The notes under the pieces were generated by a model. It did no database searches, was not told where the DNA came from, and saw only the letters and a list, made by a program, of their open reading frames with translations. Shown here piece after piece: positions 15,139 through 28,368 of a stretch of DNA of 64,000 nucleotides (position 1 is its first letter; every line of letters starts with the position of its first letter). Source of the stretch: Thalassotalea sp. LPB0316 (GTDB taxonomy: Bacteria; Pseudomonadota; Gammaproteobacteria; Enterobacterales; Alteromonadaceae); NCBI RefSeq assembly GCF_014898095.1, contig NZ_CP062946.1, positions 2,604,001 to 2,668,000 on the forward strand. The letters run 5' to 3'. Position numbers and translations under genes: made by a program.

Positions 15139-16155
15139 TTATTCCGATTTTGATGGCGCCTGGTAAATACTCCACGACTTGGTTATCGCAGCTTTATCCC
15201 GATCAATTGGGCTCATGGTGCCCGAAGAATGACTGCCAATAACATGGGTATATATTTGCGTGGTTTTTAAATCTTTATGACCAAGTAACTCTTGCACGGT
15301 TCTTATATCCGCACCATTTTTGAGTAGCTGGGTAGCAAAAGTATGGCGAAATGTATGTGCCGTGACATGTTTAGTAATACCGCTTGTTTTAACTGCCTCT
15401 CTCAACGCTTTTGTTAGCGCGGTCCAATGCAGATGGTGCCGACAAAAGTAGCCATCGCTTGGATGCTTAGAACGATTTCTTGAAGGAAAAACATACTGCC
15501 ATTTAAAATCAGTTATTGCATATGGGTACTTTCTTGCAAGCCCACTAGGTAAGCTTGTTTTGCCCTCTCCTTCTGCAAGATCCTTTTGGTGAATTTGACT
15601 GACACGGACAATTTGATCTTTTAATTCAGGGACAAGTGATTGCGGTAACATCGTCACCCTATCCTTTTTCCCCTTGCCTCGAAAAACAAAAATTGATTGG
15701 TTTTCAAAATCAATATCTTTCACTCTTAGGCGAAGTAATTCAGCTTTGCGAAGGCCTGCACCATATAACATCGAAAACATGAGTTTATATGGCGGGTTAA
15801 GTAGCTCGATTAAACACAACGCTTCTTGGTTTGACAGCACAACAGGCACTCGTGTTGGCGCTTTTGCCCGAACCGTACCTTCGAGTAACGTGAGTTTGCG
15901 ATCAAACATATGCTTATACATAAAAACAATCGCACAAAGCGCTAAATTTTGTGTTGACGAAGTAACGCCCCGATTCACCGCTAAATAAGACAAAAAATTA
16001 CTGACTTCCTGCTCAGCCATATCAGCAGGATGACGCTTATTGTTATAAAGAATAAAGCGTTTGATCCAAGTTAAATAAGCTTTCTCTGTTTGAATACTGT
16101 AATGCTTTGTTCGCAACACCTGGCGAACACTTTCTAAGAACGGCGACTGGCCCAT
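15139..16155 (-). CDS. intI: integron integrase (tyrosine recombinase)
   Basis: A 338-residue integron integrase. It recombines folded single-stranded attC sites with attI. Catalytic residues are all there: R136 ([10 protein letters not shown]), H267 and R270 (TAHTFRHTF), H293 ([11 protein letters not shown]) and nucleophile Y302 (IYTHV). The integron-specific insertion at about 205-225 ([19 protein letters not shown]) separates it from Xer recombinases. An ATG at 16185 would add ten residues but falls inside the LexA box; [11 protein letters not shown] aligns with the start of Vibrio IntIA as I recall it. The protein looks intact, so the array may still be mobile. Confidence 0.96.
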
Positions 16156-16171
16156 AACATCAAATCCATAT

Positions 16172-16191
16172 GACTGTATATACAAACAGTA
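16172..16191 (-). promoter_or_regulatory. LexA-type SOS box of intI
   Basis: CTGTATATACAAACAG at 16174-16189 fits the gammaproteobacterial SOS box CTG-N10-CAG, with favourable flanks (A before, TA after). It lies 19-34 bases before the chosen intI start and directly after the candidate -10, so LexA would block the promoter. LexA control of integron integrases is established for class 1 and Vibrio integrons. Confidence 0.85.
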
Positions 16192-16495: not shown

Positions 16496-16807
16496 ATGAA
16501 AAAATTAATATTGGTTTTCTTACTCTTAAGCTTTAATGCTTTTTCTATCGTTCCAAATGCAAAGTATTTCGAGGGTGAAGAGGCACGCATTTTAACTTTG
16601 AAAGCTCAATTAAATAATTTATCCCAATCTGAAGAAACTCCAGAGTTATTGAAATTAAAATCAAATATAAAAAGTGAAATTGAATTAATCGAAGAACGAT
16701 TGGCGTTATATAAAAAACTAGAAGCAGAACATTTGATTATGTACGCTAATCCAAATGGTGTAGATGTAAAAACACCTAACAAGAGAATAAATAGTGATTC
16801 ACAGTAG
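16496..16807 (+). CDS. cassette 1: secreted small protein
   Basis: A 103-residue protein with a signal peptide (MKKLILVFLLLSFNAFS) and a mature part that is mostly one charged helix (residues 28-78, leucine/glutamate/lysine-rich, probably a coiled coil). It is expected in the periplasm. I do not recognise a family. The last nine residues, NKRINSDSQ, are encoded by the attC site itself, so the native C-terminus was probably changed when the cassette formed. As first cassette it is the best placed for transcription from attI. Confidence 0.65.
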   Translation: MKKLILVFLLLSFNAFSIVPNAKYFEGEEARILTLKAQLNNLSQSEETPELLKLKSNIKSEIELIEERLALYKKLEAEHLIMYANPNGVDVKTPNKRINSDSQ

Positions 16808-16879
16808 TTTGTCATTTTTAGTTGCAAACAGCGCAATAAAATTGCCAAACTAAGCTCACACATTATTCAGGCGTTATAT
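16774..16879 (+). repeat. attC site 1 (type A, 106 bp)
   Basis: R'' ACCTAAC at 16774-16780, R' GTTATAT at 16873-16879. Imperfect inverted arms built around AGTAGTTTG and CAAACTA. Ends cassette 1 (16475-16873). Confidence 0.93.
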
Positions 16880-16912
16880 GCACTTGAGATTTATTCTGCC
16901 AAAAGGAATTAA

Positions 16913-17227
16913 ATGAAACTTTATCCATATTCGAAAATTGAAACATCTAACTTAAAGTCTTTATTACTTGCCGCAAGACTGTTAGGAATGTTCAGCTATA
17001 TCTTAATTGTAATTGCAATAGTCATTACAATCGCGGGATTCTCAACCGCTTTTTTTCAACCCTTTGACTTGGGTAGAGGTATGACAGCGACAATGTCTAA
17101 CTTAGCAGGAGGCTCTATTGTTATCGGCTTGTGGCTTATAGTCCCTTCATTGTTTTTATTAGCGTTTAGTGGAATATGCGCGGCAATTGTATCGTGTGAA
17201 AATAAATTTACTTCAAAAGTTAGTTAA
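16913..17227 (+). CDS. cassette 2: small membrane protein
   Basis: A 104-residue protein with two long hydrophobic helices (LGMFSYILIVIAIVITIAGF and LAGGSIVIGLWLIVPSLFLL, continuing into AFSGICAAIVS). It starts 34 bases into the cassette behind AAAGGAATTAA. No family recognised. Confidence 0.6.
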   Translation: MKLYPYSKIETSNLKSLLLAARLLGMFSYILIVIAIVITIAGFSTAFFQPFDLGRGMTATMSNLAGGSIVIGLWLIVPSLFLLAFSGICAAIVSCENKFTSKVS

Positions 17228-17233
17228 CTATGC

Positions 17234-17339
17234 ATATAACAAGAGAATAAATAGTGATTCACAGTAGTTTGTCATTTTTAGTTGCAAACAACGCAATAAA
17301 ATTGCCAAACTAGGCTCACACATTATTCAGGCGTTAGGT
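17234..17339 (+). repeat. attC site 2 (type A, 106 bp)
   Basis: R'' ATATAAC at 17234-17240, R' GTTAGGT at 17333-17339. Ends cassette 2 (16874-17333). Confidence 0.93.
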
Positions 17340-17357
17340 GAACTAAGGAAGGTTTAG

Positions 17358-17798
17358 ATGAAATCTCAAGTATTAAAGTTAATATCAATTTTGCCAATCG
17401 TAATTGTAACTAGTGCGAATGCAAATCACGCTGATGTAAAGCTCACTCATATCACCCCTGAAAAGTCAGACGCTCGTTGGATTAGAACTAAACAATTCAC
17501 ACCTCGATACCCTGTCGAGCTAGCAATGAAAGGTATTACAGGCTGCGGTGTATTTAAAGTTACTGTAGATGAAAACGGTAAAACAGATAATGTTGAATTA
17601 GTTAGTTCAATACCAAAGAAAGTCATTTATAAACCAGCAAAAAAGGTTATAAAAAGTTGGGCGTGGAAAAATATTTCTGGTGAGCCTAACCTAGTTGAAG
17701 AAAAACTTATTCGCTTAGACTTTTGTATGGGCGGTAAAACAGAAGCTGAAGCAAAAGCTAGGTGTGCTGAGCAAGCTAAATTAGAGTGTAGTGCGTAA
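17358..17798 (+). CDS. cassette 3: secreted TonB C-terminal-like domain protein
   Basis: A 146-residue protein with a signal peptide (ending TSANA) and a TonB C-terminal-type domain: TPRYPVELAMKGITGCGVFKVTVDENGKTDNVELV, residues 48-82, followed by helix KPAKKVIKSWAWK. It lacks the TonB membrane anchor and proline-rich spacer, so it cannot energise a receptor in the usual way; it may be a periplasmic domain that binds a partner. The tail holds a cysteine/alanine-rich helix (TEAEAKARCAEQAKLEC). AAGGAAGG precedes the ATG. Confidence 0.75.
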   Translation: MKSQVLKLISILPIVIVTSANANHADVKLTHITPEKSDARWIRTKQFTPRYPVELAMKGITGCGVFKVTVDENGKTDNVELVSSIPKKVIYKPAKKVIKSWAWKNISGEPNLVEEKLIRLDFCMGGKTEAEAKARCAEQAKLECSA

Positions 17799-17802
17799 GT
17801 TC

Positions 17803-17900
17803 ACCTAACAAAGTACTCAAAAGGACGCAAAATGCTTGGCTTGCGCTCCTTCGTAGCGATTTTAGCCAAGTATTTTCCGCCTCTTAGTAAGGCGTTAGCT
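17803..17900 (+). repeat. attC site 3 (type B, 98 bp)
   Basis: R'' ACCTAAC at 17803-17809, R' GTTAGCT at 17894-17900, with inner arms AATGCTTGGCT and AGCCAAGTATT. Ends cassette 3 (17334-17894). Confidence 0.9.
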
Positions 17901-17905
17901 GTTTC

Positions 17906-18289
17906 ATGAACAAAGCGAAATATTTAGGCCTAGTTTTTTTATTACCAGTAATCCTGTATCCGCTGAAAATAGATCACTTTCAAGATATTTGGATTTGGTA
18001 TTACCTTCCTTTTGCGTTTTGTTATTCCGTTTATGTTTGGTTTAAACCCACTGAAAATATTTCGAAATACATAATTTTTACACCGATAGCATTTTTAATT
18101 TTCTTTATTTCTGGCTTTACAATTCAAATAGCAATTTCAGAAGGTGTAAATTCAGCGTTGGAGTTTTTACCAATAATGCTTATTTTCGCAATACCGTTCA
18201 GCTTTGTTACTGGGCTTATTTATGTTTTACTAGCCTTATTAATTCTTAAAGCATTTGAGTCTTTAGGTTACGGTTTAAAAAACAGCTAA
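17906..18289 (+). CDS. cassette 4: four-helix membrane protein (copy 1)
   Basis: A 127-residue, highly hydrophobic protein with four probable membrane helices (about residues 7-20, 28-46, 55-76 and 86-116). The ATG stands six bases after the cassette junction with no ribosome site, so it may rely on re-initiation from the cassette before it. The stop codon is formed by the attC R'' core. The whole cassette recurs unchanged as cassette 8. No family recognised. Confidence 0.65.
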   Translation: MNKAKYLGLVFLLPVILYPLKIDHFQDIWIWYYLPFAFCYSVYVWFKPTENISKYIIFTPIAFLIFFISGFTIQIAISEGVNSALEFLPIMLIFAIPFSFVTGLIYVLLALLILKAFESLGYGLKNS

Positions 18290-18389
18290 CAAGAGAATAA
18301 ATAGTGATTCACAGTAGTTTGTCACTTTTAGTTGCAAACAACGCAATAAAATTGCCAAACTAGGCTCACACATTATTCAGGCGTTATAT
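18284..18389 (+). repeat. attC site 4 (type A, 106 bp)
   Basis: R'' AGCTAAC at 18284-18290, R' GTTATAT at 18383-18389. Ends cassette 4 (17895-18383). Confidence 0.93.
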
Positions 18390-18422
18390 ACCAATAGTTG
18401 CATTTAACCAAGGAAGAAGAAA

Positions 18423-18725
18423 ATGAAGAAATTGACTATGTTAACAGGCATAATTACTCTATCAATTACAGCGGCCAGTGCTATGGCTGATTCATCAACA
18501 AAGTCGGTTTATGAGTGCAAACCCAACGGCTGTGTACTAGAGATACTATCTCTGGATAGAAAAGTTATAGTGCATCAAAATGACATTTCTTCAATCACCA
18601 TTAATCACATTACAGATTCAGCCGTAGAAGTTACGTACATTCAAAACAAGCAGGTTAAGTATGTAACAACAAGCCTTTTAAGCTCTAATATTCATGTTAG
18701 TAATGGTCAGAAACTTGGTATATAA
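18423..18725 (+). CDS. cassette 5: secreted 100-residue protein (copy 1 of 3)
   Basis: A signal peptide (cleavage near ASAMA-DSS) precedes a mature chain of about 77 residues with two cysteines (C31 and C36 in YECKPNGCVLEIL) that could form one disulfide. The rest is beta-rich (SVYECKPNGCVLEILSLD, SAVEVTYIQNKQVKYVTT), suggesting a compact periplasmic domain. AAGGAAG lies before the ATG. Identical in cassette 7 and nearly identical in cassette 13. No family recognised. Confidence 0.7.
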   Translation: MKKLTMLTGIITLSITAASAMADSSTKSVYECKPNGCVLEILSLDRKVIVHQNDISSITINHITDSAVEVTYIQNKQVKYVTTSLLSSNIHVSNGQKLGI

Positions 18726-18825
18726 CAAGAGAATAAATAGTGATTCACAGTAGTTTGTCACTTTTAGTTGCAAACAACGCAATAAAATTGCCAAACTAAG
18801 CTCACACATTATTCAGGCGTTAGTT
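18720..18825 (+). repeat. attC site 5 (type A, 106 bp)
   Basis: R'' ATATAAC at 18720-18726, R' GTTAGTT at 18819-18825. Ends cassette 5 (18384-18819). Confidence 0.93.
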
Positions 18826-18867
18826 TGCAATGGATAAGCTGTAACTTATAAATTTAAGGAAATTCAA

Positions 18868-19107
18868 ATGTTTGTTCTTTTATGGGTATTATTTACTTTA
18901 TTGATTATCGTTTGGGCTAAAAGGTGGAATCACTCAGTTATTTTATGGGGGATAACCTCTCTAATTATTAGCCCTTTAATAACGGGGGTTATTCTTTTAA
19001 TCGTAGGTTCAGCCCACCCAAAGTGCCCTTCATGCAAAGAGGTTGTTAAATCTGGCTCTCGTATTTGTAAGCACTGTGGTCAAAAGTTTAAAGAAAGCAC
19101 GACTTAA
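18868..19107 (+). CDS. cassette 6: membrane protein with C-terminal zinc ribbon
   Basis: A 79-residue protein: two membrane helices (residues 2-18 and 25-47) and then a cysteine-pair ribbon, CPSC at 53-56 and CKHC at 68-71 (HPKCPSCKEVVKSGSRICKHCGQKF). The ribbon resembles the double-pair zinc ribbons at the ends of many small bacterial membrane proteins. It may bind zinc on the cytosolic side. The ATG follows TTAAGGAAA. Confidence 0.7.
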   Translation: MFVLLWVLFTLLIIVWAKRWNHSVILWGITSLIISPLITGVILLIVGSAHPKCPSCKEVVKSGSRICKHCGQKFKESTT

Positions 19108-19114
19108 AATTGCA

Positions 19115-19220
19115 AACTAACAAGAGAATAAATAGTGATTCACAGTAGTTTGTCACTTTTAGTTGCAAACAGCGCAATAAAATTGCCAAACTAAGTTCAC
19201 ACATTATTCAGGCGTTATAT
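19115..19220 (+). repeat. attC site 6 (type A, 106 bp)
   Basis: R'' AACTAAC at 19115-19121, R' GTTATAT at 19214-19220. Ends cassette 6 (18820-19214). Confidence 0.93.
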
Positions 19221-19253
19221 ACCAATAGTTGCATTTAACCAAGGAAGAAGAAA

Positions 19254-19556
19254 ATGAAGAAATTGACTATGTTAACAGGCATAATTACTCTATCAATTAC
19301 AGCGGCCAGTGCTATGGCTGATTCATCAACAAAGTCGGTTTATGAGTGCAAACCCAACGGCTGTGTACTAGAGATACTATCTCTGGATAGAAAAGTTATA
19401 GTGCATCAAAATGACATTTCTTCAATCACCATTAATCACATTACAGATTCAGCCGTAGAAGTTACGTACATTCAAAACAAGCAGGTTAAGTATGTAACAA
19501 CAAGCCTTTTAAGCTCTAATATTCATGTTAGTAATGGTCAGAAACTTGGTATATAA
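19254..19556 (+). CDS. cassette 7: secreted 100-residue protein (copy 2 of 3)
   Basis: Same protein as at 18423-18725, residue for residue, inside a 436-base cassette that also matches cassette 5 in leader and attC. Such identity points to recent copying by the integrase or by recombination between cassettes. Confidence 0.7.
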   Translation: MKKLTMLTGIITLSITAASAMADSSTKSVYECKPNGCVLEILSLDRKVIVHQNDISSITINHITDSAVEVTYIQNKQVKYVTTSLLSSNIHVSNGQKLGI

Positions 19557-19656
19557 CAAGAGAATAAATAGTGATTCACAGTAGTTTGTCACTTTTAGTT
19601 GCAAACAACGCAATAAAATTGCCAAACTAAGCTCACACATTATTCAGGCGTTAGCT
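19551..19656 (+). repeat. attC site 7 (type A, 106 bp)
   Basis: R'' ATATAAC at 19551-19557, R' GTTAGCT at 19650-19656. Ends cassette 7 (19215-19650). Confidence 0.93.
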
Positions 19657-19661
19657 GTTTC

Positions 19662-20045
19662 ATGAACAAAGCGAAATATTTAGGCCTAGTTTTTTTATTA
19701 CCAGTAATCCTGTATCCGCTGAAAATAGATCACTTTCAAGATATTTGGATTTGGTATTACCTTCCTTTTGCGTTTTGTTATTCCGTTTATGTTTGGTTTA
19801 AACCCACTGAAAATATTTCGAAATACATAATTTTTACACCGATAGCATTTTTAATTTTCTTTATTTCTGGCTTTACAATTCAAATAGCAATTTCAGAAGG
19901 TGTAAATTCAGCGTTGGAGTTTTTACCAATAATGCTTATTTTCGCAATACCGTTCAGCTTTGTTACTGGGCTTATTTATGTTTTACTAGCCTTATTAATT
20001 CTTAAAGCATTTGAGTCTTTAGGTTACGGTTTAAAAAACAGCTAA
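19662..20045 (+). CDS. cassette 8: four-helix membrane protein (copy 2)
   Basis: Protein identical to that at 17906-18289. The 489-base cassette, including its attC, repeats cassette 4. As in copy 1 the ATG is six bases behind the junction and lacks a ribosome site. Confidence 0.65.
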   Translation: MNKAKYLGLVFLLPVILYPLKIDHFQDIWIWYYLPFAFCYSVYVWFKPTENISKYIIFTPIAFLIFFISGFTIQIAISEGVNSALEFLPIMLIFAIPFSFVTGLIYVLLALLILKAFESLGYGLKNS

Positions 20046-20145
20046 CAAGAGAATAAATAGTGATTCACAGTAGTTTGTCACTTTTAGTTGCAAACAACGC
20101 AATAAAATTGCCAAACTAGGCTCACACATTATTCAGGCGTTAGGT
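20040..20145 (+). repeat. attC site 8 (type A, 106 bp)
   Basis: R'' AGCTAAC at 20040-20046, R' GTTAGGT at 20139-20145. Ends cassette 8 (19651-20139). Confidence 0.93.
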
Positions 20146-20158
20146 ACTTATCGAAGTT

Positions 20159-20671
20159 ATGAGTTTTAAACGAGTGCGATGGGAACAAGGAAGCGTTTAT
20201 GCAATTCCTCTGAAAGACGGAAGTTTCGGTGTTTGCCAAGCCATCGACTTAATGATGCCCAATGTTGTGTATATCGCAGTATTTTCCTATCGGTTCAAAG
20301 AGCTTCCTGAAACTATTCCGCCTTTAAGTAGAAATGACGTTTTGTCTCTCGGCGCAACATGGAAGCAAGAATTAAATAACGGAACATGGGCATCATTAGG
20401 CAAACGCGAACCTGTTGTACTTAAATCAGACTTCCCTAATGAAGAATTTGCAGAAGACGGCTATATTGGTGCAGTTACATCGGATGCAGGCTTATTTTCG
20501 AATTTCTTAGCAGCATGTTTTGGTTTAACTCCGTGGAATACCATGTTCGATCCTGAATATTGGGATGAATACTTAAATTCAGGAAATTCTCGCCCGAGTT
20601 CAGTTAAAATCTTGAGTGAAGAAGCACGTAATAAATATCGTAGCGAAGAATTGGGTATAAAAAGTACCTAA
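20159..20671 (+). CDS. cassette 9: Imm26-like immunity protein
   Basis: A 170-residue cytosolic protein. Its start, RVRWEQGSVYAIPLKDGSFGVCQAID, has the pattern WxxGxVxAIPLxDGxFGxxxV of immunity protein 26, a family that protects cells against polymorphic or contact-dependent toxins. No toxin gene is next to it, so it would be an orphan immunity gene, as also found in other integrons. The C-terminal half (LTPWNTMFDPEYWDEYLN) is not one I recognise. The ribosome site is weak. Function is inferred from the N-terminal pattern. Confidence 0.6.
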   Translation: MSFKRVRWEQGSVYAIPLKDGSFGVCQAIDLMMPNVVYIAVFSYRFKELPETIPPLSRNDVLSLGATWKQELNNGTWASLGKREPVVLKSDFPNEEFAEDGYIGAVTSDAGLFSNFLAACFGLTPWNTMFDPEYWDEYLNSGNSRPSSVKILSEEARNKYRSEELGIKST

Positions 20672-20771
20672 CAAGCGCATAAAGTGATTGGGACTGCTAA
20701 CGCTTGGCTCGGTTCCGCTTCGCTGCACAAGTTTAGCCAAGCATTATCAGCCCCTTATTGGGGCGTTAGGT
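20666..20771 (+). repeat. attC site 9 (type B, 106 bp)
   Basis: R'' ACCTAAC at 20666-20672, R' GTTAGGT at 20765-20771; inner arms GCTTGGCT and AGCCAAGC. Ends cassette 9 (20140-20765). Confidence 0.92.
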
Positions 20772-20790
20772 GCACAAGGAGCCTCGTCAA

Positions 20791-21000
20791 ATGGAATCAG
20801 ACTTATCTTTCGCAATATTCTTAGCTTGGTTACCCGCTCTTCTAGTATTTTTAATTTGGTTAACACCGTTAGTTTTGATTGGTCGTTCAGATAAAGTAGT
20901 TCCAAAGGAGAAAGCAGCTTGGATTGTTGCTACTATTTTTATTAGCTGGTTTTCATGGATTCTGTTCATGCTTCTAGCTCCAATCAAAGATAAAGAATAG
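20791..21000 (+). CDS. cassette 10: small two-helix membrane protein
   Basis: A 69-residue protein with two membrane helices (FAIFLAWLPALLVFLIWL and AAWIVATIFISWFSWILFML) joined by a charged loop GRSDKVVPKEK. AAGGAG precedes the ATG at 20791; a GTG at 20770 inside the R' core is less likely. The TPLVLIGRSDKVVPKEKAAW part recalls small phospholipase-D-nuclease-N-like or superinfection-immunity-like proteins, but not enough for a call. Confidence 0.6.
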   Translation: MESDLSFAIFLAWLPALLVFLIWLTPLVLIGRSDKVVPKEKAAWIVATIFISWFSWILFMLLAPIKDKE

Positions 21001-21005
21001 AGTTC

Positions 21006-21111
21006 ACCTAACAAGAGAATAAATAGTGATTCACAGTAGTTTGTCACTTTTAGTTGCAAACAACGCAATAAAATTGCCAAACTAGGCTCACACATTATTC
21101 AGGCGTTAGGT
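21006..21111 (+). repeat. attC site 10 (type A, 106 bp)
   Basis: R'' ACCTAAC at 21006-21012, R' GTTAGGT at 21105-21111. Ends cassette 10 (20766-21105). Confidence 0.93.
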
Positions 21112-21116
21112 GTTTC

Positions 21117-21479
21117 ATGAAGCTTTGGTCAATTATTTTACTTGCAGGCTCTTTACTTTCTAATTCTTCTATTGCCGCAGAATGCCCTGTGGAAAGCGAT
21201 ACAGAGCATATGTATTCCATCTTTTTTCGTACCGCTTATAAGCCAAATCCTGAAGAGCCGGGAACATATATCTATCAAATTCCAGATAAAACCAAAGGTA
21301 ACATTGCTTGGGCCTGTCTGGAAAAAGCGGCAAGCTTAAATAGTTGTCCAGCAATTCGATCAATGGAAATGTATTATAAACACGGCGTAGGGCTCAAAAC
21401 TTTTGGAATTGCAGCTAACCCTAAAAAAGCTGAATTTTACGCTAATAAGCGGATAAAGTACTGTAATAACAACACCTAA
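21117..21479 (+). CDS. cassette 11: secreted Sel1-like repeat protein
   Basis: A 120-residue protein with a signal peptide (MKLWSIILLAGSLLSNSSIAA). The mature part has five cysteines and one probable Sel1-type helical hairpin (KGNIAWACLEKAASLNSCPAIRSMEMYYKHGVGL followed by NPKKAEFYANKRIKYC). Sel1 repeats are protein-binding scaffolds. The ATG lies six bases behind the cassette junction without a ribosome site, as in cassettes 4 and 8. Confidence 0.6.
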   Translation: MKLWSIILLAGSLLSNSSIAAECPVESDTEHMYSIFFRTAYKPNPEEPGTYIYQIPDKTKGNIAWACLEKAASLNSCPAIRSMEMYYKHGVGLKTFGIAANPKKAEFYANKRIKYCNNNT

Positions 21480-21578
21480 CAAGCCAATAAAGCATGGGAC
21501 TGCTAAAGCTTGGCTCGGTTCCGCTTCGCTTCACAATTATAGCCAAGCTTTATCAGCCTCTTATTAGGGGCGTTATGT
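21474..21578 (+). repeat. attC site 11 (type B, 105 bp)
   Basis: R'' ACCTAAC at 21474-21480, R' GTTATGT at 21572-21578. Its interior is identical to that of attC site 14 although the cassettes differ. Ends cassette 11 (21106-21572). Confidence 0.92.
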
Positions 21579-21595
21579 GTCTAGGAGATTATGGA

Positions 21596-21814
21596 GTGAT
21601 CATCAAGTTTAATGTGTTTGGTAAGCCTATGTCTGTTCTTAAAAAGGAGCATGAATGGCAGTTGTTTAATGAATCAGATACAGGTATTCGCTCTAGAGTT
21701 TATGACGTAGTAATACCATCCGATATGGACGCCTCTGAACTGGCATCTTACCTTGATGATATTTACCATGAATATTCGTCAGAAAAACACCCAAAGGTAA
21801 TTAAATTAGGTTAG
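21596..21814 (+). CDS. cassette 12: small cytosolic protein, DUF7661-like
   Basis: A 72-residue protein from a GTG at 21596, eight bases behind AGGAG; an ATG at 21575 inside the R' core is also in frame. The sequence KFNVFGKPMSV, VVIPSDMDASELASYLDDIYHEYSS and HPKVIKL fits a small conserved family that I recall as DUF7661, of unknown role. No membrane segment or signal peptide. Confidence 0.55.
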   Translation: MIIKFNVFGKPMSVLKKEHEWQLFNESDTGIRSRVYDVVIPSDMDASELASYLDDIYHEYSSEKHPKVIKLG

Positions 21815-21824
21815 CGTAATAGCC

Positions 21825-21928
21825 ACATAACAAGCAGTTAAAGGATTGGACGTCTAAAGCTTGGCTGATGTTCGTTCCTCACAAAAGTATAGCCAAGCTT
21901 TAGCCGCCCCTTAACGTGGGCGTTATAT
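21825..21928 (+). repeat. attC site 12 (type B, 104 bp)
   Basis: R'' ACATAAC at 21825-21831, R' GTTATAT at 21922-21928; inner arms AAAGCTTGGCT and AGCCAAGCTTT. Ends cassette 12 (21573-21922). Confidence 0.92.
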
Positions 21929-21961
21929 ACCAATAGTTGCATTTAACCAAGGAAGAAGAAA

Positions 21962-22264
21962 ATGAAGAAATTGACTATGTTAACAGGCATAATTACTCTA
22001 TCAATTACAGCGGCCAGTGCTATGGCTGATTCATCAACAAAGTCGGTTTATGAGTGCAAACCCAACGGCTGTGTACTAGAGATACTATCTCTGGATAGAA
22101 AAGTTATAGTGCATCAAAATGACATTTCTTCAATCACCATTAATCACATTACAGATTCAGCCGTAGAAGTTACATACATTCAAAACAAGCAGGTTATGTA
22201 TGTAACAACAAGCCTTTTAAGCTCTAATATTCATGTTAGTAATGGTCAGAAGCTTGGTATATAA
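21962..22264 (+). CDS. cassette 13: secreted 100-residue protein (copy 3, diverged)
   Basis: Third copy of the cassette 5/7 protein. It differs by one residue (lysine to methionine in NKQVMYV) and a few silent bases, and its attC differs slightly from those of copies 1 and 2. It stands apart from them, behind a type B attC, so it was inserted in a separate event. Confidence 0.7.
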   Translation: MKKLTMLTGIITLSITAASAMADSSTKSVYECKPNGCVLEILSLDRKVIVHQNDISSITINHITDSAVEVTYIQNKQVMYVTTSLLSSNIHVSNGQKLGI

Positions 22265-22364
22265 CAAGAGAATAAATAGTGATTCACCATAGTTTGTCAT
22301 TTTTAGTTGCAAACAACGCAATAAAATTGCCAAACTAGGCTCACACATTATTCAGGCGTTATAT
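22259..22364 (+). repeat. attC site 13 (type A variant, 106 bp)
   Basis: R'' ATATAAC at 22259-22265, R' GTTATAT at 22358-22364; CACCATAG replaces CACAGTAG in the left arm. Ends cassette 13 (21923-22358). Confidence 0.92.
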
Positions 22365-22382
22365 TTCCATACGGATAGTGAG

Positions 22383-22712
22383 ATGAATTCTCAAGATATT
22401 GAAAAACTAAACGAGAAGAAAGCTTTGGAAGAATCCCTCAAAGGCTTGGAAGCTTTCGATGAAGAAAGGTTAAAAAACAAGCGAACAAAGTTTCTAGCTT
22501 TGGGAGCTTTATTGTTTTTAATATCTTTCGCTACACTTATTAATCTTAATCTACCTTTTGAAGCATTTCTTGTCGGCGCGGGTATTGCTATAAGTATTGT
22601 ATTTACCCACTTTGCTACCTTTGTTGGCAAAACAACTTTTTACGCTAAGTATACCAATAGCTATGTGGATATTAAGGCAATGCGTAAAAGGCTAGATGAA
22701 TTGGAAATATAA
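22383..22712 (+). CDS. cassette 14: coiled-coil membrane protein
   Basis: A 109-residue protein. Residues 1-33 are charged and helical (NEKKALEESLKGLEAFDEERLKNK), then come two membrane helices (FLALGALLFLISFATLI and AFLVGAGIAISIVFTHFATF) and a polar tail ending IKAMRKRLDELEI. The layout suggests both ends face the cytosol. No family recognised. Confidence 0.6.
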   Translation: MNSQDIEKLNEKKALEESLKGLEAFDEERLKNKRTKFLALGALLFLISFATLINLNLPFEAFLVGAGIAISIVFTHFATFVGKTTFYAKYTNSYVDIKAMRKRLDELEI

Positions 22713-22811
22713 CAAGCCAATAAAGCATGGGACTGCTAAAGCTTGGCTCGGTTCCGCTTCGCTTCACAATTATAGCCAAGCTTTATCAGCCTCTTATTAG
22801 GGGCGTTAGGT
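22707..22811 (+). repeat. attC site 14 (type B, 105 bp)
   Basis: R'' ATATAAC at 22707-22713, R' GTTAGGT at 22805-22811. Ends cassette 14 (22359-22805). Confidence 0.92.
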
Positions 22812-22830
22812 TACTTAGAGGGTACATTCT

Positions 22831-23094
22831 GTGCAGAACAAGGAATCAGTTACAAACTCCGGCTCAATAATGAACGATCTTATATGGTTAGGCGTTCCAA
22901 TTATCATGTTCGTTCAGAGTGGTAGCAAAGTTGCCTTAGTAATTTTAGCTTTTGCACTGCTAGCGGTAATATCTGGTCGTATCAAAGTAAAGATACCTGA
23001 GTCTGTTTGGCTAGAGAAAGTAGAAAAAGCTGCAACTTGGGCTATGTATGGTTCTTACTTATCGTGGCTGGCGAAAATAATAATACAACCGTAA
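22831..23094 (+). CDS. cassette 15: small membrane protein
   Basis: An 87-residue protein from a GTG at 22831 with GAGGGT eight bases before; an ATG at 22870 would remove 13 residues. Two hydrophobic segments (LIWLGVPIIMFVQSG and VALVILAFALLAVI) precede an amphipathic stretch WLEKVEKAATWAMYGSYLSWL. No family recognised. Confidence 0.55.
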   Translation: MQNKESVTNSGSIMNDLIWLGVPIIMFVQSGSKVALVILAFALLAVISGRIKVKIPESVWLEKVEKAATWAMYGSYLSWLAKIIIQP

Positions 23095-23196
23095 CCTAAC
23101 AAGCAACTAAAGTGGGACTGCTAATACTTGGCTCAGTTCCGCTTGGCTCCACAAGTTTAGCCAAGTATTATCAGCCCCGTAGTGTGGGCGTTAGTT
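23094..23196 (+). repeat. attC site 15 (type B, 103 bp)
   Basis: R'' ACCTAAC at 23094-23100, R' GTTAGTT at 23190-23196; inner arms AATACTTGGCT and AGCCAAGTATT. Ends cassette 15 (22806-23190). Confidence 0.92.
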
Positions 23197-23230
23197 GTAA
23201 TGAAAGTTTGGATGTAAATTGTTAATCAGG

Positions 23231-23590
23231 ATGATACATATTGGATTGTGTAAGTCAGTAATGCACTGGAATGATCAATCCAAAAATGAATACTGCGCAA
23301 AAATTCTGATCGTAATCGGATTGAGTTTTTATCTCTGGTCAGTCTCAACTCTACTTCTGAGTCACTTTGAAATTCAAATTTCTATTGAATCAAATCTAAG
23401 GCTTATAGAGCCTTTTGTATATTTGTGTTTAGCCTCGCTGATAACCATTTATTCAGTGGATAATAAAGAAAAATATGAACAATCATTGGAGTTGTATAAC
23501 AAACTACCTAAATTCGTGGCATATGTAATAAATGCAATGTCTGTTATTTTTGTTTTTTCAGGCTCTATAGTTCACACAAGCTTACTTTAA
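23231..23590 (+). CDS. cassette 16: membrane protein
   Basis: About 119 residues from the ATG at 23231; a TTG at 23219 and an ATG at 23261 are also in frame. Three hydrophobic helices (IVIGLSFYLWSVSTLLL, PFVYLCLASLITIYSV and FVAYVINAMSVIFVFSG). No family recognised and no strong ribosome site. Confidence 0.55.
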   Translation: MIHIGLCKSVMHWNDQSKNEYCAKILIVIGLSFYLWSVSTLLLSHFEIQISIESNLRLIEPFVYLCLASLITIYSVDNKEKYEQSLELYNKLPKFVAYVINAMSVIFVFSGSIVHTSLL

Positions 23591-23601
23591 GGTTAAGTTA
23601 C

Positions 23602-23707
23602 AACTAACAAGAGAATAAATGGTGATTCACAGTAGTTTGTCACTTTTAGTTGCAAACAACGCAATAAAATTGCCAAACTAAGCTCACACATTATTCAGGC
23701 GTTATGT
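23602..23707 (+). repeat. attC site 16 (type A, 106 bp)
   Basis: R'' AACTAAC at 23602-23608, R' GTTATGT at 23701-23707. Ends cassette 16 (23191-23701). Confidence 0.93.
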
Positions 23708-23723
23708 TTTTTCGAGAGATTAG

Positions 23724-24113
23724 ATGGGTAATTGGGATAATGCACTTATAAGAAGCATTATATTTGTTGGCCTTGGTTCGACACTTTATCTATTGGTGAT
23801 GGCTTTTATTGATAACTATGAGCCACATGAGTTCATGTTAATTTTAGTTTTATACGGTCTAGGGTATTTGTTAATTTCGTTTGTTGGCTGGGTATAAATC
23901 GGCATACCAACCCACTATGTAATCTCAAAATATACAAATGCAGCTTACCTATATTACATTACCGTCATTGTTGTATTAACCCTAATCTATTGGTTCTTTG
24001 AAAATAAAGGCGACGCCTTGTTTTTTGGTTTTTTTGCAGCAGCACAAGCATTAATATTTCGATACTATGCGTATAAAAAACATAACAAGGCAGTAAATAG
24101 TGATTCACAGTAG
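23724..24113 (+). pseudogene. cassette 17: membrane protein gene broken by one in-frame stop
   Basis: One reading frame runs from ATG 23724 to TAG 24111-24113 and is interrupted only by TAA at 23895-23897. The first part gives 57 residues (MGNWDNALIRSIIFVGLG to LISFVGWV); after the stop the same frame continues for 71 codons, IGIPTHYVISKY to RYYAYKKHN, and into attC-encoded KAVNSDSQ. Membrane helices lie on both sides of the stop (LGSTLYLLVMAFI, FMLILVLYGLGYLLISF, YYITVIVVLTLIYWF), so the unbroken form would be a four-helix protein of about 129 residues. No frameshift is needed. Either the gene is dead, or the short form is made. Confidence 0.75.
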
Positions 24114-24185
24114 TTTGTCACTTTTAGTTGCAAACAACGCAATAAAATTGCCAAACCAAGCTCACACATTATTCAGGCGTTATGT
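24080..24185 (+). repeat. attC site 17 (type A, 106 bp)
   Basis: R'' ACATAAC at 24080-24086, R' GTTATGT at 24179-24185. Ends cassette 17 (23702-24179). Confidence 0.93.
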
Positions 24186-24188
24186 TTC

Positions 24189-24476
24189 TCAATCATTGCG
24201 TTTCATCGCAACTTTATAGACTTTTCCTTTGTCTCGCTTACCTACAGAGATTACGGTTACTGTAATTATTTCATCGTTTACTTCATAAACTAGTCGGTAA
24301 CCAGCTTGTCGTAGCTTTATTTTATAGAGTTCATTGGCGCCAGATAACTTTGCACTTGGTATGTGTGGATTAACTAAAATTTCTGCTAACTTCTTTTTAA
24401 ACTGAGTTTGAATAGTGGCGCCAAGTTTTTTCCACTCTTTCAGAGCTGACTTTTTAAATTCCAGTTCATAACTCAT
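24189..24476 (-). CDS. cassette 18: RelE/ParE-type toxin
   Basis: A 95-residue toxin of the RelE superfamily. RelE proteins cut mRNA in the ribosomal A site. The typical order is present: ELEFKKSALKEWKKL at the start, then SGANELYKIKLRQAGYRLVYEVND and the C-terminal VISVGKRDKGKVYKVA with the basic and tyrosine residues that act in catalysis. It overlaps the antitoxin gene by 11 bases. The pair runs against the direction of all other cassette genes, so it depends on its own promoter. Confidence 0.9.
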   Translation of the reverse strand: MSYELEFKKSALKEWKKLGATIQTQFKKKLAEILVNPHIPSAKLSGANELYKIKLRQAGYRLVYEVNDEIITVTVISVGKRDKGKVYKVAMKRND

Positions 24477-24714
24477 CTAGGCTAACCTTAATGCTTTCTT
24501 CATTTTTTCTGCTTTCGGCAATTTGCATTAGCTCTAAATCTTCTAAATGATCCATTAAAAATTCATACGTTTCTGCAGGTATGCAATAGAACGCTGGCTC
24601 ATTTCTATTTAATATAGCGATCGGTTCGCCATTTGCGCTTAAAGCAACTTTCATGGGGTTAGCTTTTAATTCACTAATACTTGCTGCTGTTTCTGTTAAA
24701 ATCCTAGTAGTCAT
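24466..24714 (-). CDS. cassette 18: Phd/YefM-type antitoxin
   Basis: An 82-residue antitoxin with the Phd/YefM DNA-binding N-terminus: ILTETAASISELKANPMKVALSANGEPIAILNRNEPAFYCIP. The C-terminal half is the acidic, toxin-wrapping part. It would neutralise the RelE-like toxin and repress its own operon. GAGG lies before the ATG. Loss of the cassette would free the toxin, so the pair may stabilise the array. Confidence 0.9.
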   Translation of the reverse strand: MTTRILTETAASISELKANPMKVALSANGEPIAILNRNEPAFYCIPAETYEFLMDHLEDLELMQIAESRKNEESIKVSLDEL

Positions 24715-24729
24715 ACAAACCTCGGCACA

Positions 24730-24753
24730 TTTAATAGGTCTTTAATTAGGTCT
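24730..24753 (-). promoter_or_regulatory. tandem 12-bp operator-like repeats before the antitoxin
   Basis: TTTAATAGGTCT followed without a gap by TTAATTAGGTCT, between the antitoxin start and its -10. Such repeats suit autoregulation by the antitoxin. Inferred from position. Confidence 0.5.
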
Positions 24754-24754
24754 C

Positions 24755-24783
24755 ATTGTAATCCTCAAAATATAACAAGGCAA
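24755..24783 (-). promoter_or_regulatory. toxin-antitoxin promoter with its -35 inside attC
   Basis: Minus strand TTGCCT (24778-24783), 17-base spacer, TACAAT (24755-24760). The -35 falls in attC site 18, just outside the R'' core. Confidence 0.65.
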
Positions 24784-24868
24784 TTAATCGGACAAAAATC
24801 TATTGGCTGTTCTCACTTCGTTCGTTATTCTAGCCAAAAGTTTTTAGCCGTTTATTCAGGCGTTGGTT
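24770..24868 (+). repeat. attC site 18 (type B, 99 bp)
   Basis: R'' ATATAAC at 24770-24776, R' GTTGGTT at 24862-24868; inner arms TATTGGCT and AGCCAAAA. Ends cassette 18 (24180-24862), the last with a good attC. Confidence 0.88.
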
Positions 24869-24882
24869 TACAAGGAAAGATT

Positions 24883-25119
24883 ATGAATCCTCCATGGAAT
24901 GGTGAGAAAGTTAATTTATTTATCCGCTTATTAGCAATTACTTTTATTGTGTGTGCTTTATTCGCGTTTAACGCACTTATCGAAAAGGGTAATCTCACAA
25001 CAGTCGGCGGGGACTGGCGAGATTATATTGCTATTGCTTTTACGCCATACTGTTTTATTCTATTTTTAAAAGTTGCTATTACTGGTCATGCTCCCAAAAC
25101 GTGGCTACCTTGGAAGTAA
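24883..25119 (+). CDS. cassette 19: small membrane protein
   Basis: A 78-residue protein with two membrane helices (FIRLLAITFIVCALFAFNAL and YIAIAFTPYCFILFLKVAI) and a C-terminus HAPKTWLPWK. AAGGAAAG lies before the ATG. Its attC is decayed, so it can no longer leave easily as a cassette. No family recognised. Confidence 0.6.
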   Translation: MNPPWNGEKVNLFIRLLAITFIVCALFAFNALIEKGNLTTVGGDWRDYIAIAFTPYCFILFLKVAITGHAPKTWLPWK

Positions 25120-25124
25120 TGTAA

Positions 25125-25220
25125 ACATACAAGCAGTTAAAGGTTTGGACGCCTTAAGCTTGGCTGGTGTTCATTCCTCACAAATTACAGAAAAGCAACA
25201 CCTTAACGGCAGTGTTACCG
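25125..25220 (+). repeat. degenerate attC site 19
   Basis: The left half follows attC site 12 (AAGCAGTTAAAGG, AGCTTGGCTG, TTCCTCACAAA). R'' is ACATACA in place of ACATAAC, R' is GTTACCG, and the right inner arm AGCCAAGC is missing. Confidence 0.7.
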
Positions 25221-25247
25221 CAAAGAGAAACTAAGCTAGATAAACGT

Positions 25248-25664
25248 ATGACGATAAAATTCAGTGATGTGTTAGATCTATTTGAATTGGTGAATTTTGG
25301 TTCTCCATACGATCATGAAGGATACATCTGTAAGTCGTCCGGCAAAACTTACTTTTATTCAGCGTTCGGAGATAACGAAGAAGAGCTTCCTGACGATATT
25401 AATGAAGAAAAATATTTGATGATCCCTCATAAAAGTGAGTTAAATCTTGGCAGAGATCTGGTCTTTGATTTTGCACTGGAATATTTACCATCAGAATATG
25501 AAAATATCCGTTCGATTTTCCGCTCTAAAGGCGCTTACGCTAGGTTTAAGTCACTGCTAGAGGCTTCAGGAAAAGTTGAGCAGTGGTATAAATATGAAAC
25601 AGAGCGCACGGAAAAAGCGTTACGCGATTGGTGCTCAATACAAGATGTTGAAATTAGCGGCTAA
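25248..25664 (+). CDS. UPF0158 family protein (former cassette)
   Basis: A 138-residue protein from the ATG at 25248. It opens with KFSDVLDLFELVNF and carries the acidic stretch DNEEELPDDINEEKYLMIPHKSELNLGRDLVFDFA. It ends with AYARFKSLLEASGKVEQWYKYETERTEKALRDWC, the helical signature of UPF0158. These proteins are cytosolic and uncharacterised. An upstream ATG at 25167 would run through the attC remnant and is unlikely. It lies between two decayed attC sites. Confidence 0.8.
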   Translation: MTIKFSDVLDLFELVNFGSPYDHEGYICKSSGKTYFYSAFGDNEEELPDDINEEKYLMIPHKSELNLGRDLVFDFALEYLPSEYENIRSIFRSKGAYARFKSLLEASGKVEQWYKYETERTEKALRDWCSIQDVEISG

Positions 25665-25760
25665 CAAGCGGTGAGTAGAGTGAATGCCTAAAATTTAGCT
25701 GATGTTCGATCCTCACACAGTACCCCAAGTATTATCAACCACTCATATAGCGATTTAGAG
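25659..25760 (+). repeat. degenerate attC site 20
   Basis: Starts at GGCTAAC, the end of the UPF0158 gene, and keeps traces of type B arms (TTAGCTGATGTTCGATCCTC, CCCAAGTATTATCA). The R' position reads GATTTAG instead of GTTRRRY. Probably no longer recombines. The metallo-beta-lactamase gene starts just after it. Confidence 0.65.
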
Positions 25761-25777
25761 GCCAATCGGAGGCTAGT

Positions 25778-26494
25778 TTGAAGTTTTACGTATTATTACT
25801 TTTACTTTTTTGTGTAAGCAGCGCAAAAGCTAATGATTCAAAATTCAATGTAACGCCTATAGCTGAAAACGTATATCAACATATTTCCTTTCTTGAAATA
25901 GAACCTTGGGGCCTTATAGGGGCTTCTGGACTTGTATTGGTTGAAGGCGAAGATGCATACCTCATCGATACACCATGGACTAACCAAGATACTCAAAAAC
26001 TCATAGCATGGGTAAAATCTAAAGGGTTAAATATTAAAGGTGCGATTGTGACTCATTTCCATCAGGATGCTAGCGGTGGATTGCTCGCACTGAATAATGC
26101 CAAGATAAAAACATATGCAACGTCGTTAACAAATAAACTACTTCGTGAACAGGGACGTGAAATTGCTAACAATGAGATAAATTCAGTCACATTTGAGTTT
26201 GCTGAAAGCGCTTTAGAGACTTTTTATCCCGGTGCAGGCCACAGTCGCGACAATATCGTAATCTGGCTCCCAAAACAAAGCATACTATTTGGCGGCTGCT
26301 TCGTGAAAAGTCTAACAAGTAAAAGTTTAGGTAATATTGCAGATGCATCAGTCAACGAGTGGCCCAATTCAATACACAAAATTTTAAATAAGTACCCGAC
26401 TATTCAATGGGTGGTGCCTGGCCATGGCAAAGTCGGCGGGGTTGAGTTGTTAGAGCACACCGAGCAGCTTGTCATTGATAAAATTGGCCGCTAG
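25778..26494 (+). CDS. subclass B1 metallo-beta-lactamase, IMP-like
   Basis: A 238-residue periplasmic zinc beta-lactamase. The signal peptide is MKFYVLLLLLFCVSSAKA. Zinc ligands are complete: H93, H95, D97 (HFHQD), H155 (GAGHSRDN), C174 (GGCFVK) and H216 (VPGH). B1 substrate-contact features are also present: loop tryptophan W44 (EPWGLIG), K177 and N186 (LGNIADA). Whole blocks recall IMP-1 (AYLIDTP, LTNKLL, ILFGGCF, VVWLP-like VIWLP). From the family, hydrolysis of carbapenems and other beta-lactams is expected but not proven. The start is TTG at 25778 with GGAGG five bases before; no ATG is in frame. It follows a decayed attC in the integron tail. Confidence 0.93.
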   Translation: MKFYVLLLLLFCVSSAKANDSKFNVTPIAENVYQHISFLEIEPWGLIGASGLVLVEGEDAYLIDTPWTNQDTQKLIAWVKSKGLNIKGAIVTHFHQDASGGLLALNNAKIKTYATSLTNKLLREQGREIANNEINSVTFEFAESALETFYPGAGHSRDNIVIWLPKQSILFGGCFVKSLTSKSLGNIADASVNEWPNSIHKILNKYPTIQWVVPGHGKVGGVELLEHTEQLVIDKIGR

Positions 26495-26675
26495 TAATTG
26501 TGGTCCTGGCTTTTAGGTTAAACCACGATAATACTCACTAGCTTTGTTGGCGTGAGTTAATCTCTTTATATTTTTCTAATAATTGTTGTAACACATACCT
26601 TGCAAGTGATTTTCATTTGAACCAAGTCGCTAATTTCATCGTAATAAGCGTATTTAAAAAAAGAGGTTGTGAAGC

Positions 26676-26927
26676 ATGGAACTGACGTCGGAAATAGAGT
26701 CAAGGATCATAGAAATGGCATGGGAAGACCGCACGCCATTTGAGGCGATAGAATTACAATTTGGTTTGAATGAGCCCAACGTTATTCAGTTTATGCGCAG
26801 ACGACTAAAACCAAGTAGTTTTAAATTGTGGCGCACACGAGTGTCGGGTCGTAAAACAAAGCACAAGCGACTGCGAAGTTCAGCTATAACCCGAGGTTAT
26901 TGTCCAACCCAGTATAAGCGACGTTAG
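26676..26927 (+). CDS. TIGR03643/DUF2805 family protein
   Basis: An 83-residue basic protein. Its core, RIIEMAWEDRTPFEAIELQFGLNEPNVIQFMRRRLKPSSFKLWRTRVSGRKTKH, is the full TIGR03643 signature and looks like a helix-turn-helix. Function is unknown. AAGAGG stands before the ATG. Such genes are normally chromosomal, not cassette genes, so this one may mark a break within the integron tail. A hairpin AACAACG-CGTTGTT with a T-run downstream (26942-26986) may end the transcript. Confidence 0.85.
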   Translation: MELTSEIESRIIEMAWEDRTPFEAIELQFGLNEPNVIQFMRRRLKPSSFKLWRTRVSGRKTKHKRLRSSAITRGYCPTQYKRR

Positions 26928-27064
26928 CTGATACCAGTTAACAACGTATTTCAGTGCAGCTTGCTCCCTCGTTGTTTTTTCCAAAAAGGTGTTATAGTTT
27001 GGTGATGCCGTCGTATTGCTGGCACCTCAGAACGACCCGATTGTTACATACATGGAAAGCTATA

Positions 27065-27472
27065 ATGACAATTTTTAAATCAAAACAAGATGCATGGTTA
27101 ATCGCCGTAGTTTATACAAGCAGTTTTATTTGCTTTATCGCCAGTGGCTATGTGTTAGCGCAAGGCCTGTCTATTACAAATATTATCATTGCCGCTGTTA
27201 CCGCGCTTGTTGGCGGCGTATTCCCGATTTGGCTCATTGTATCGCTGAAATATGTAGTTGATGAAAAATTGCTAAAGATTATTTGCGGCCCATTTAAATG
27301 GCATATTGAACTATCTGCAATTAATTCGGTAGTGCCTTCGTCTGACTTAGTTTCCAGCCCCGCCCTATCTCTAGATAGGCTATTAATTAACTATGGCTTT
27401 GGCAAAACAGTGCTAGTTTCGCCAAAAGATAAAAAAGGCTTTATTGGCGCAATAGGTTTAAATAAAGTATAA
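27065..27472 (+). CDS. membrane protein with bacterial PH (bPH_4) domain
   Basis: About 135 residues from the ATG at 27065, behind GGAAAG. Two membrane helices (LIAVVYTSSFICFIASGYVL and IIIAAVTALVGGVFPIWLIV) precede a domain reading YVVDEKLLKIICGPFKWHIELSAINSVVPSSDLVSSPALSLDRLLINYG, then VLVSPKDKKGFIGAIG. This is the YyaB-like bPH_4 pattern. Function is unknown. The gene ends inside a decayed attC, so it is probably a former cassette. Upstream in-frame starts exist but lack support. Confidence 0.75.
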   Translation: MTIFKSKQDAWLIAVVYTSSFICFIASGYVLAQGLSITNIIIAAVTALVGGVFPIWLIVSLKYVVDEKLLKIICGPFKWHIELSAINSVVPSSDLVSSPALSLDRLLINYGFGKTVLVSPKDKKGFIGAIGLNKV

Positions 27473-27564
27473 GTGATTGAACTGCTAGCGATTGGCTTAG
27501 CTCAGCCCTACTTTGCTAGCCAGTTAAGTCAAACTTTTTCAGCCTTTTAACAAGGGCGTAACGG
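27466..27564 (+). repeat. degenerate attC site 21, right-hand limit of the integron
   Basis: Keeps the type B order: AAGTGATTG-ACTGCTA-CGATTGGCT...GCTAGCC...TTTTTCAGCC-TTTTAACAAGGGC. R'' reads AGTATAA and R' GTAACGG, both altered. About 99 bases. Confidence 0.65.
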
Positions 27565-27581
27565 CCGAAGGGATTGCACGG

Positions 27582-28298
27582 ATGAACTCACCTACAAAGC
27601 TTATTACACCAGAAAACGCGATACATAAGCCGTCTCCTCTTGCATTTTTGTTAGACTTAGTTATCTATATTTCGATAATGTTTCTCGTCAGGGAGATATA
27701 CTTTTCACAGTTTAACTTTATCACCAATGGCCTTTTTTGGTCCTTTGTTATGTTGCTTACGGCAACGATTTTAATGCGCTTGCGAAATGTTTCTTGGAAA
27801 GAAATAGGTTTATTCAAGCCGAGCAATGTAAAAAAATCATTATTGGCAACTATTTTTATTTTTGCCTTCACAATTATTTCAATATTAATTTTTCAAACCT
27901 TAAAAGATCAATTAGGCCTGCAACTTTCTCCTGATATGTCGAATGAAACAGCAGTATCTAAATTTGGTGATTTGTCAGGGAATTGGAAATTATTTTTCAC
28001 CATAATGCCATTTATTTGGTTGCAGTCTGCACTAGAAGAAATACTAGATAGAGGGTTTCTGATCAACTGGATTGAAAAAGCACTCTCTAGCACTTGGTTT
28101 GCAACAATTTTTGCTGTTTTGGCTCAGGCCCTAATTTTTGGGTTTAGGCATTCTTATGATATATCAGAACGCTCAATAACTGTTGCAATTATTGGTCTCG
28201 CTATGGGCATAGGTTATGTCGCGTTTGGCAGGAACTTATGGCCACTTATTTTTGTCCATTGCCTACTTAATACAATGTCTATGTTAGACCGAGTTTAA
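27582..28298 (+). CDS. CPBP family intramembrane protease-like protein
   Basis: A 238-residue membrane protein with about seven helices. The three CPBP (Abi/CAAX protease) motifs are present in order: EEILDR (residues about 150-155), FGFRH (about 183-187) and HCLLN near the C-terminus (about 226-230). Known relatives are glutamic-type proteases that process prenylated proteins or act in bacteriocin immunity. It is the first gene right of the decayed integron tail; whether it is cassette-derived is open, as no attC follows it. Confidence 0.85.
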   Translation: MNSPTKLITPENAIHKPSPLAFLLDLVIYISIMFLVREIYFSQFNFITNGLFWSFVMLLTATILMRLRNVSWKEIGLFKPSNVKKSLLATIFIFAFTIISILIFQTLKDQLGLQLSPDMSNETAVSKFGDLSGNWKLFFTIMPFIWLQSALEEILDRGFLINWIEKALSSTWFATIFAVLAQALIFGFRHSYDISERSITVAIIGLAMGIGYVAFGRNLWPLIFVHCLLNTMSMLDRV

Positions 28299-28368
28299 GC
28301 AAGACAGCTAAAAACCAATGACATTGCTTCGAAATGTTACGCTTCTTTAGTGTCGTGTAATTGTAGGT

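What the first reader, a model, noticed from the sequence alone, without database searches (positions are those of the whole stretch)
25778..26494. A complete IMP-like subclass B1 metallo-beta-lactamase in the tail of a chromosomal integron
All six zinc ligands, the B1 loop tryptophan, the lysine after the zinc cysteine and the B1 asparagine are present, together with a signal peptide and good ribosome site. Blocks such as AYLIDTP and ILFGGCF recall IMP enzymes. IMP genes travel as integron cassettes, so a B1 gene sitting between decayed attC sites of a marine sedentary integron is a plausible relative of their source. It starts with TTG, which might keep expression low. Cassette origin is inferred; no intact attC follows the gene.
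Basis: partly seen in the sequence, partly recalled or inferred. Interest (0 to 1): 0.88.

Follow-up and report, generated by a model that had tools for sequence, protein, structure and literature searches.

The report
VMB-type beta-lactamase stranded in integron
A bacterium carries an intact-looking gene for an antibiotic-destroying zinc enzyme that once arrived as a movable integron cassette, and intact cassettes of the same kind sit in chromosomal integrons of related bacteria, which may be where at least one plasmid-borne enzyme came from.

Summary
It is not IMP-like: its nearest named relatives are VMB-1 (56.8%) and VAM-1 (54.3%), and a 73-protein tree puts it in a 36-row VMB clade (100/97), apart from IMP/KHM. 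It fails the curated VMB and IMP cut-offs, so it is a new VMB-type B1 protein. No attC follows the gene; the next relic is 1 kb on.

The relatives tell more. In the sampled set, 17 of 36 VMB-clade rows have an attC-like flank (7 on both sides), against 2 of 37 other rows and 0 of 50 control flanks. Gene similarity does not follow host relatedness. Chromosomal integrons of this family are thus a plausible reservoir of VMB-type enzymes. Activity and expression are untested; IMP has a closer relative elsewhere.

The parts
25778..26494 (+). VMB-type subclass B1 metallo-beta-lactamase gene, TTG start, 238 aa
25650..25777 (+). Decayed attC directly 5' of the gene, followed by the kept cassette leader (TTAGAG, 23 nt before the start)
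   Evidence: z 12.2, 0 of 60 shuffles as good; leader
25115..25240 (+). Another decayed attC, overlapping the called start of the UPF0158 ORF
   Evidence: z 18.5
25167..25664 (+). UPF0158-family ORF, preceding cassette
26676..26927 (+). DUF2805 ORF between the gene and the next relic attC
26954..27472 (+). bPH_4 (bacterial PH domain) ORF between the gene and the next relic attC
27460..27581 (+). Next decayed attC downstream
   Evidence: z 8.8
16774..24868 (+). Array with 18 intact attC sites (each hit on the bottom strand)
15139..16185 (-). Integron integrase IntI, 348 aa

Best explanation
A subclass B1 metallo-beta-lactamase of the VMB clade that entered this chromosome as an integron cassette near the far end of an array. 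The recombination sites around it have since decayed, so it is probably fixed in place, while the protein kept its active site. It most likely is a secreted zinc enzyme that hydrolyses beta-lactams, probably weakly expressed. Shown: family, active-site residues, clade, relic attC, kept leader, homologous intact cassettes in related genomes, movement of such genes between genera. Inferred: secretion, zinc chemistry, hydrolysis, weak expression, immobility.
For: B1 cut-off passed; all B1 ligands kept; 0 of 38 columns invariant in the other 35 VMB-clade proteins are broken; VMB clade 100/97; relic attC 5' z 12.2; leader TTAGAG within 60 nt of the start in 15 of 36 VMB-clade rows including the window, 0 of 37 others, 30 of 607 control ORFs; congeners have only 45-48% identical MBLs but 94.9% pyrD.
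Against: No attC behind the gene (z -0.3). 19 of 36 clade rows, including the window's sister L058, show no attC flank at z >= 5. No assay. No sigma-70-like promoter in 25100-27100 (0; shuffles mean 5.0). A review passage says a VAM-1-bearing isolate was not resistant to imipenem or meropenem.
Confidence: 0.85

Rival explanations
1. The gene is intact but silent: about 20 attC sites away from the integrase end, with a TTG start and no recognisable promoter, it gives its host no resistance.
For: No promoter-like site in 25100-27100; TTG start; 9.6 kb from IntI.
Against: Open frame and active site kept while the neighbouring attC decayed: in simulation the ORF stays stop-free in 4.9% of runs at 0.1 changes per site and 0.05% at 0.3. 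The promoter scan covers only sigma-70-like sites.
Confidence: 0.3
2. A metallo-hydrolase of B1 fold whose real substrate is not a beta-lactam.
For: General knowledge only: the superfamily holds many non-lactamases; no assay exists here.
Against: B1 cut-off passed, all ligands and pocket residues kept, inside the clade of VMB-1 and VAM-1.
Confidence: 0.06
3. Not a former cassette: an ordinary chromosomal gene that came to lie beside the array end.
For: No attC behind it; two non-cassette-like ORFs follow before the next relic; sister gene L058 has no attC flank.
Against: Relic attC and cassette leader in the exact place seen in front of intact cassettes; congener G001 lacks the whole region between M16 peptidase and pyrD.
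Confidence: 0.07
4. An IMP-lineage enzyme, relative of the IMP source.
For: Shared blocks and B1 residues; IMP is the sister-group range at 43-46% identity.
Against: Separate clades, AU p 0.0496, IMP cut-off not met (230.3 of 460).
Confidence: 0.04

Closest known systems
VMB-1 (Vibrio alginolyticus plasmid pVb1796, NZ_MH113855.1)
   Same: Closest named enzyme by tblastn (56.8%); integron cassette with the same leader start and an attC of the window's type (66.8 bits with the window-built model)
   Different: On a conjugative plasmid with its own intact attC and integrase; NCBI VMB cut-off not met by the window protein (321.2 of 500)
VAM-1 (V. alginolyticus plasmid pC704, NZ_OP958859.1)
   Same: Same clade; 54.3%
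   Different: Beside ISCR1; no attC flank found. A clade of only window, L058, VMB-1, L042 and VAM-1 is rejected (AU p 0.0095)
IMP-1 / IMP-68 / KHM-1
   Same: B1 enzymes, IMP as integron cassettes
   Different: 41-46% identity, separate clade 100/99; IMP attC only 24-32 bits with model R2
AMM-1 (Alteromonas mangrovi; PMC12238668, abstract and passages)
   Same: Chromosomal B1.2 enzyme of a marine bacterium, active when expressed in E. coli
   Different: 36.6% to VMB-1 and reported without mobile elements; its comparison names VMB-1 alone as integron-borne

Membership tests
Subclass B1 metallo-beta-lactamases (NF033088) | Curated score cut-off 200 bits | tested here: met
   262.5 bits
Subclass B1 metallo-beta-lactamases (NF033088) | Zinc ligands HxHxD, H, C, H | tested here: met
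   H93 H95 D97 H155 C174 H216
Subclass B1 metallo-beta-lactamases (NF033088) | Zinc-dependent beta-lactam hydrolysis | not testable with these tools
   needs purified protein
VMB family (NF038184) | Curated score cut-off 500 bits | tested here: not met
   321.2 bits, best of the named families
VMB clade in the broad sense | Groups with VMB-1 apart from IMP/KHM | tested here: met
   36-row clade 100/97
IMP family (NF012147) and DIM/SIM/IMP (NF012145) | Curated cut-offs 460 and 288 bits | tested here: not met
   230.3 and 264.9 bits
Integron gene cassette | Integrase and attC array at the same locus | tested here: met
Integron gene cassette | Cassette 5' boundary: preceding attC and leader | tested here: met
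   attC decayed but recognisable, leader kept
Integron gene cassette | Own attC behind the gene | tested here: not met
   z -0.3 and -0.1; no model hit: a former, not a working, cassette

The most novel reading that the evidence does not exclude
Chromosomal integrons of this bacterial family are the standing reservoir in which VMB-type B1 metallo-beta-lactamases live, diversify and move between genera as cassettes; plasmid VMB-1 was captured from that pool, and the IMP lineage may have a similar cassette past in a neighbouring family.
Probability: 0.5. Interest if true: 0.78.

Novelty: new member of a known kind. Interest (0 to 1): 0.6.

Why it matters
Where integron-borne B1 carbapenemases come from is an open question. 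One large screen pointed to chromosomal genes of Shewanella and other Proteobacteria (PMC5637372, passages). An attC study put most beta-lactamase cassettes in a marine cluster but assigned resistance cassettes to three taxa only, and VMB does not occur in its text (PMC8352920, passages). Here VMB-type genes are seen as intact cassettes in chromosomal arrays, and VMB-1 has a 94% identical relative with the same leader in a genome of this family. The source question for this enzyme can thus be tested by sampling this family. The window gene is a fossil of the process: the sites decayed, the enzyme gene stayed open.

Tried and rejected
Rejected: an IMP identity and a plain non-cassette origin. 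A phage link was sought and not found: no match in phages and no pattern match in viral contigs. A 3' attC behind the gene was looked for by covariance model and by alignment and not found. Window 22000-30300 has no near DNA match in plasmids. Rfam and ARAGORN found nothing in the window. The source of the integrase beside VMB-1 was sought in 395 family genomes: best 65%. A first attempt to pair strict R box patterns found only chance or few sites; a looser pattern worked.

Rows taken and dropped: 61 of 395 genomes have a match at E <= 1e-30 by my count of the listing (own genome included); 20-kb regions were fetched for 39 of them (40 regions), the best-scoring ones, so the share of attC-flanked genes is for the top of the list. 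G005, whose match is in two pieces with stops, was left out. Of the order search (44 of 394 at E <= 1e-30) the loci L083-L106 without L092 (duplicate of L077) entered the tree: 23 rows. The tree lacks GIM, DIM, SIM, TMB, SFB, SLB and ALI. Model R2 was built from sites that include several flanks it was then used on; R1, built from the window alone, saw both flanks in G223, G053, G177 and G106 but only 20-bit hits in G095. The attC library came from R1 hits in the window and 13 relatives; near-identical pieces were left out, and its 25 control ORFs (50 flanks; highest z 4.6) came from the window alone.

Full report
What is there. The ORF at 25778-26494 encodes 238 residues from a TTG start with a good ribosome site. 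It passes NCBI's subclass B1 equivalog cut-off (262.5 bits, cut-off 200). Its closest solved relative is VMB-1, E 3e-90. Aligned with VMB-1, VAM-1, IMP-1, IMP-68 and KHM-1 it shows the six zinc ligands, the loop tryptophan, the lysine after the zinc cysteine and the asparagine. In plasmid records the best identities are VMB-1 56.8%, VAM-1 54.3%, IMP-68 45.9% and KHM-1 44.2%.

Which family. A maximum-likelihood tree of 73 proteins holds the window protein, 40 from regions of the family search, 23 from the order search, 8 plasmid references and one Maribacter. The window protein falls in a clade of 36 rows with VMB-1 and VAM-1 (100/97); its sister is L058 (100/90). Holding the window protein with the IMP/KHM clade is borderline rejected (AU p 0.0496). 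Holding it in one small clade with L058, VMB-1, L042 and VAM-1 is rejected too (p 0.0095), so it is not a direct sister of VMB-1. It fails the curated VMB and IMP cut-offs. The tree lacks GIM, DIM, SIM, TMB, SFB and SLB; NCBI's GIM, DIM, SIM and TMB models score lower than the VMB model.

The integron. IntI lies at 15139-16185 and 18 intact attC at 16774-24868. Beyond that the array decays. Local alignment to a library of 114 attC finds relics within 25115-25240 (z 18.5), 25650-25777 (z 12.2) and 27460-27581 (z 8.8). It finds none behind the gene (z -0.3), in five other distal stretches or in three control stretches. So the gene directly follows a decayed attC, and the next relic comes after two more ORFs. 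In the congener G001 the flanking genes, M16 peptidase and pyrD, are 75 nt apart, so the region is absent there. In G002 an integron with another integrase lies on the other side of the RND genes.

Why a former cassette. Bases just inside the crossover point travel with a cassette (established integron knowledge). The motif TTAGAG lies within 60 nt upstream of the start in 15 of 36 VMB-clade rows, the window among them, in 0 of 37 other rows and in 30 of 607 control ORFs of the same loci. In 10 of the 15 it begins 17 nt before the start. The window keeps this leader although the box next to it is altered.

The wider pattern. attC-like flanks at z >= 5 occur in 17 of 36 VMB-clade rows, 7 of them on both sides, in 2 of 37 other rows (L079, L101) and in 0 of 50 control flanks. 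With the model built from the window alone, G223, G053, G177 and G106 have attC on both sides of the gene; with R2, G095 as well. In G223 and G177, each one contig, IntI lies about 17 and 9 kb away in the expected orientation. In G053, G062 and G015 the best IntI is 73 kb or more away, so those are attC clusters without a nearby integrase. Over 105 pairs of 15 genomes, MBL identity is unrelated to pyrD identity (Spearman 0.018). G106 and G085, of different genera, share 88.6% in the MBL and 65.6% in pyrD; the window genome and its two congeners share 45-48% in the MBL and 94.9% in pyrD. The 12 non-congeners were chosen for their MBL loci. Against this reading, 19 of 36 rows have no attC flank at z >= 5.

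Link to plasmid VMB-1. VMB-1 is 94.3% identical to the MBL of L042 (G159, same family, another genus). The two share the 29 nt from the leader to the start codon and have visibly similar attC sites. VMB-1 is the first gene behind an integrase of its own. That integrase is at best 65% identical to one in 395 family genomes, so the source of the mobile platform was not found. The direction of transfer is inferred. The L042 contig (878 kb) begins 1.8 kb before the gene, so its place in an array is not seen.

Function. Secretion, zinc use and hydrolysis are inferred. The protein breaks 0 of 38 positions invariant in the other 35 clade members, and simulated neutral change rarely leaves the ORF stop-free (4.9% at 0.1 changes per site, 0.05% at 0.3). 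No sigma-70-like promoter was found in 25100-27100 (0; shuffles mean 5.0, sd 2.8). Weak expression is likely but untested. A review passage reports that recipients of a VMB-1 plasmid had raised imipenem MICs and that a VAM-1 isolate was not carbapenem resistant.

Literature. Searches listed no paper whose title or shown abstract start describes VMB-type genes as intact cassettes of chromosomal integrons. Most listed papers were not opened. The VMB-2 and VAM-1 papers are not held, and the VMB-1 paper was seen only as a reference, so an earlier statement cannot be excluded. Passages of PMC12238668 (with abstract), PMC8352920, PMC5637372, PMC9604146 and PMC12286353 were read.

Verdict. A real B1 metallo-beta-lactamase gene, VMB-type rather than IMP-like, of cassette origin and now probably immobile. 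Alone it is a new member of a known kind; the cassette pattern among its relatives is the more interesting result. The family's and host's names are not known from any call.

Noticed in passing
L101 and L127:9573-10352 (G555, same order, other family): An IMP-type gene, 73.5% to IMP-68 and 67.9% to IMP-1, with an attC-like site directly 5' (z 25.5; 25.7 bits partial), 0.2 kb from a contig end. The nearest IMP relative in this tree.
   Followed up: partly
L042:1834-2577 (G159): MBL 94.3% identical to plasmid VMB-1, same 29-nt leader, attC behind it.
   Followed up: yes
L036:2655-3623, L160, L161: The integrase beside VMB-1 is at least 99% identical in 8 plasmid records of Vibrio, Providencia and Marinobacter; in two looked at it stands beside other cassettes such as qnrVC1 or dfrA.
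   Followed up: partly
window 17884-22264: Near-identical duplicate cassettes: three copies of one 100-aa ORF (18423, 19254, 21962) and two of a 127-aa ORF (17906, 19662).
   Followed up: no
window 24189-24714: ParE/Phd-type toxin-antitoxin pair on the minus strand within the array.
   Followed up: no
window 27582-28298 and L107:2842-3513: CPBP-type membrane protease gene past the last relic attC; a 77% homologue lies some 6 kb beyond the end of the array of congener G002.
   Followed up: no
L005:312-2247 (G002): The 47% MBL of congener G002 lies beside a serine-hydrolase ORF that looks beta-lactamase-like by eye (not searched), about 19 kb beyond its last detected attC.
   Followed up: no
G000:C1:736583-737542: A second integron-integrase-like gene in the window's own genome, 42% to the integrase beside VMB-1.
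   Followed up: no
L079 (G158), MBL at 9.7-10.4 kb: A 43% relative outside the VMB clade, also with an attC directly 5' (68.8 bits, z 20.0).
   Followed up: partly
G005:C3:215600-216294: A VMB-like gene in two pieces with stops, apparently broken.
   Followed up: no
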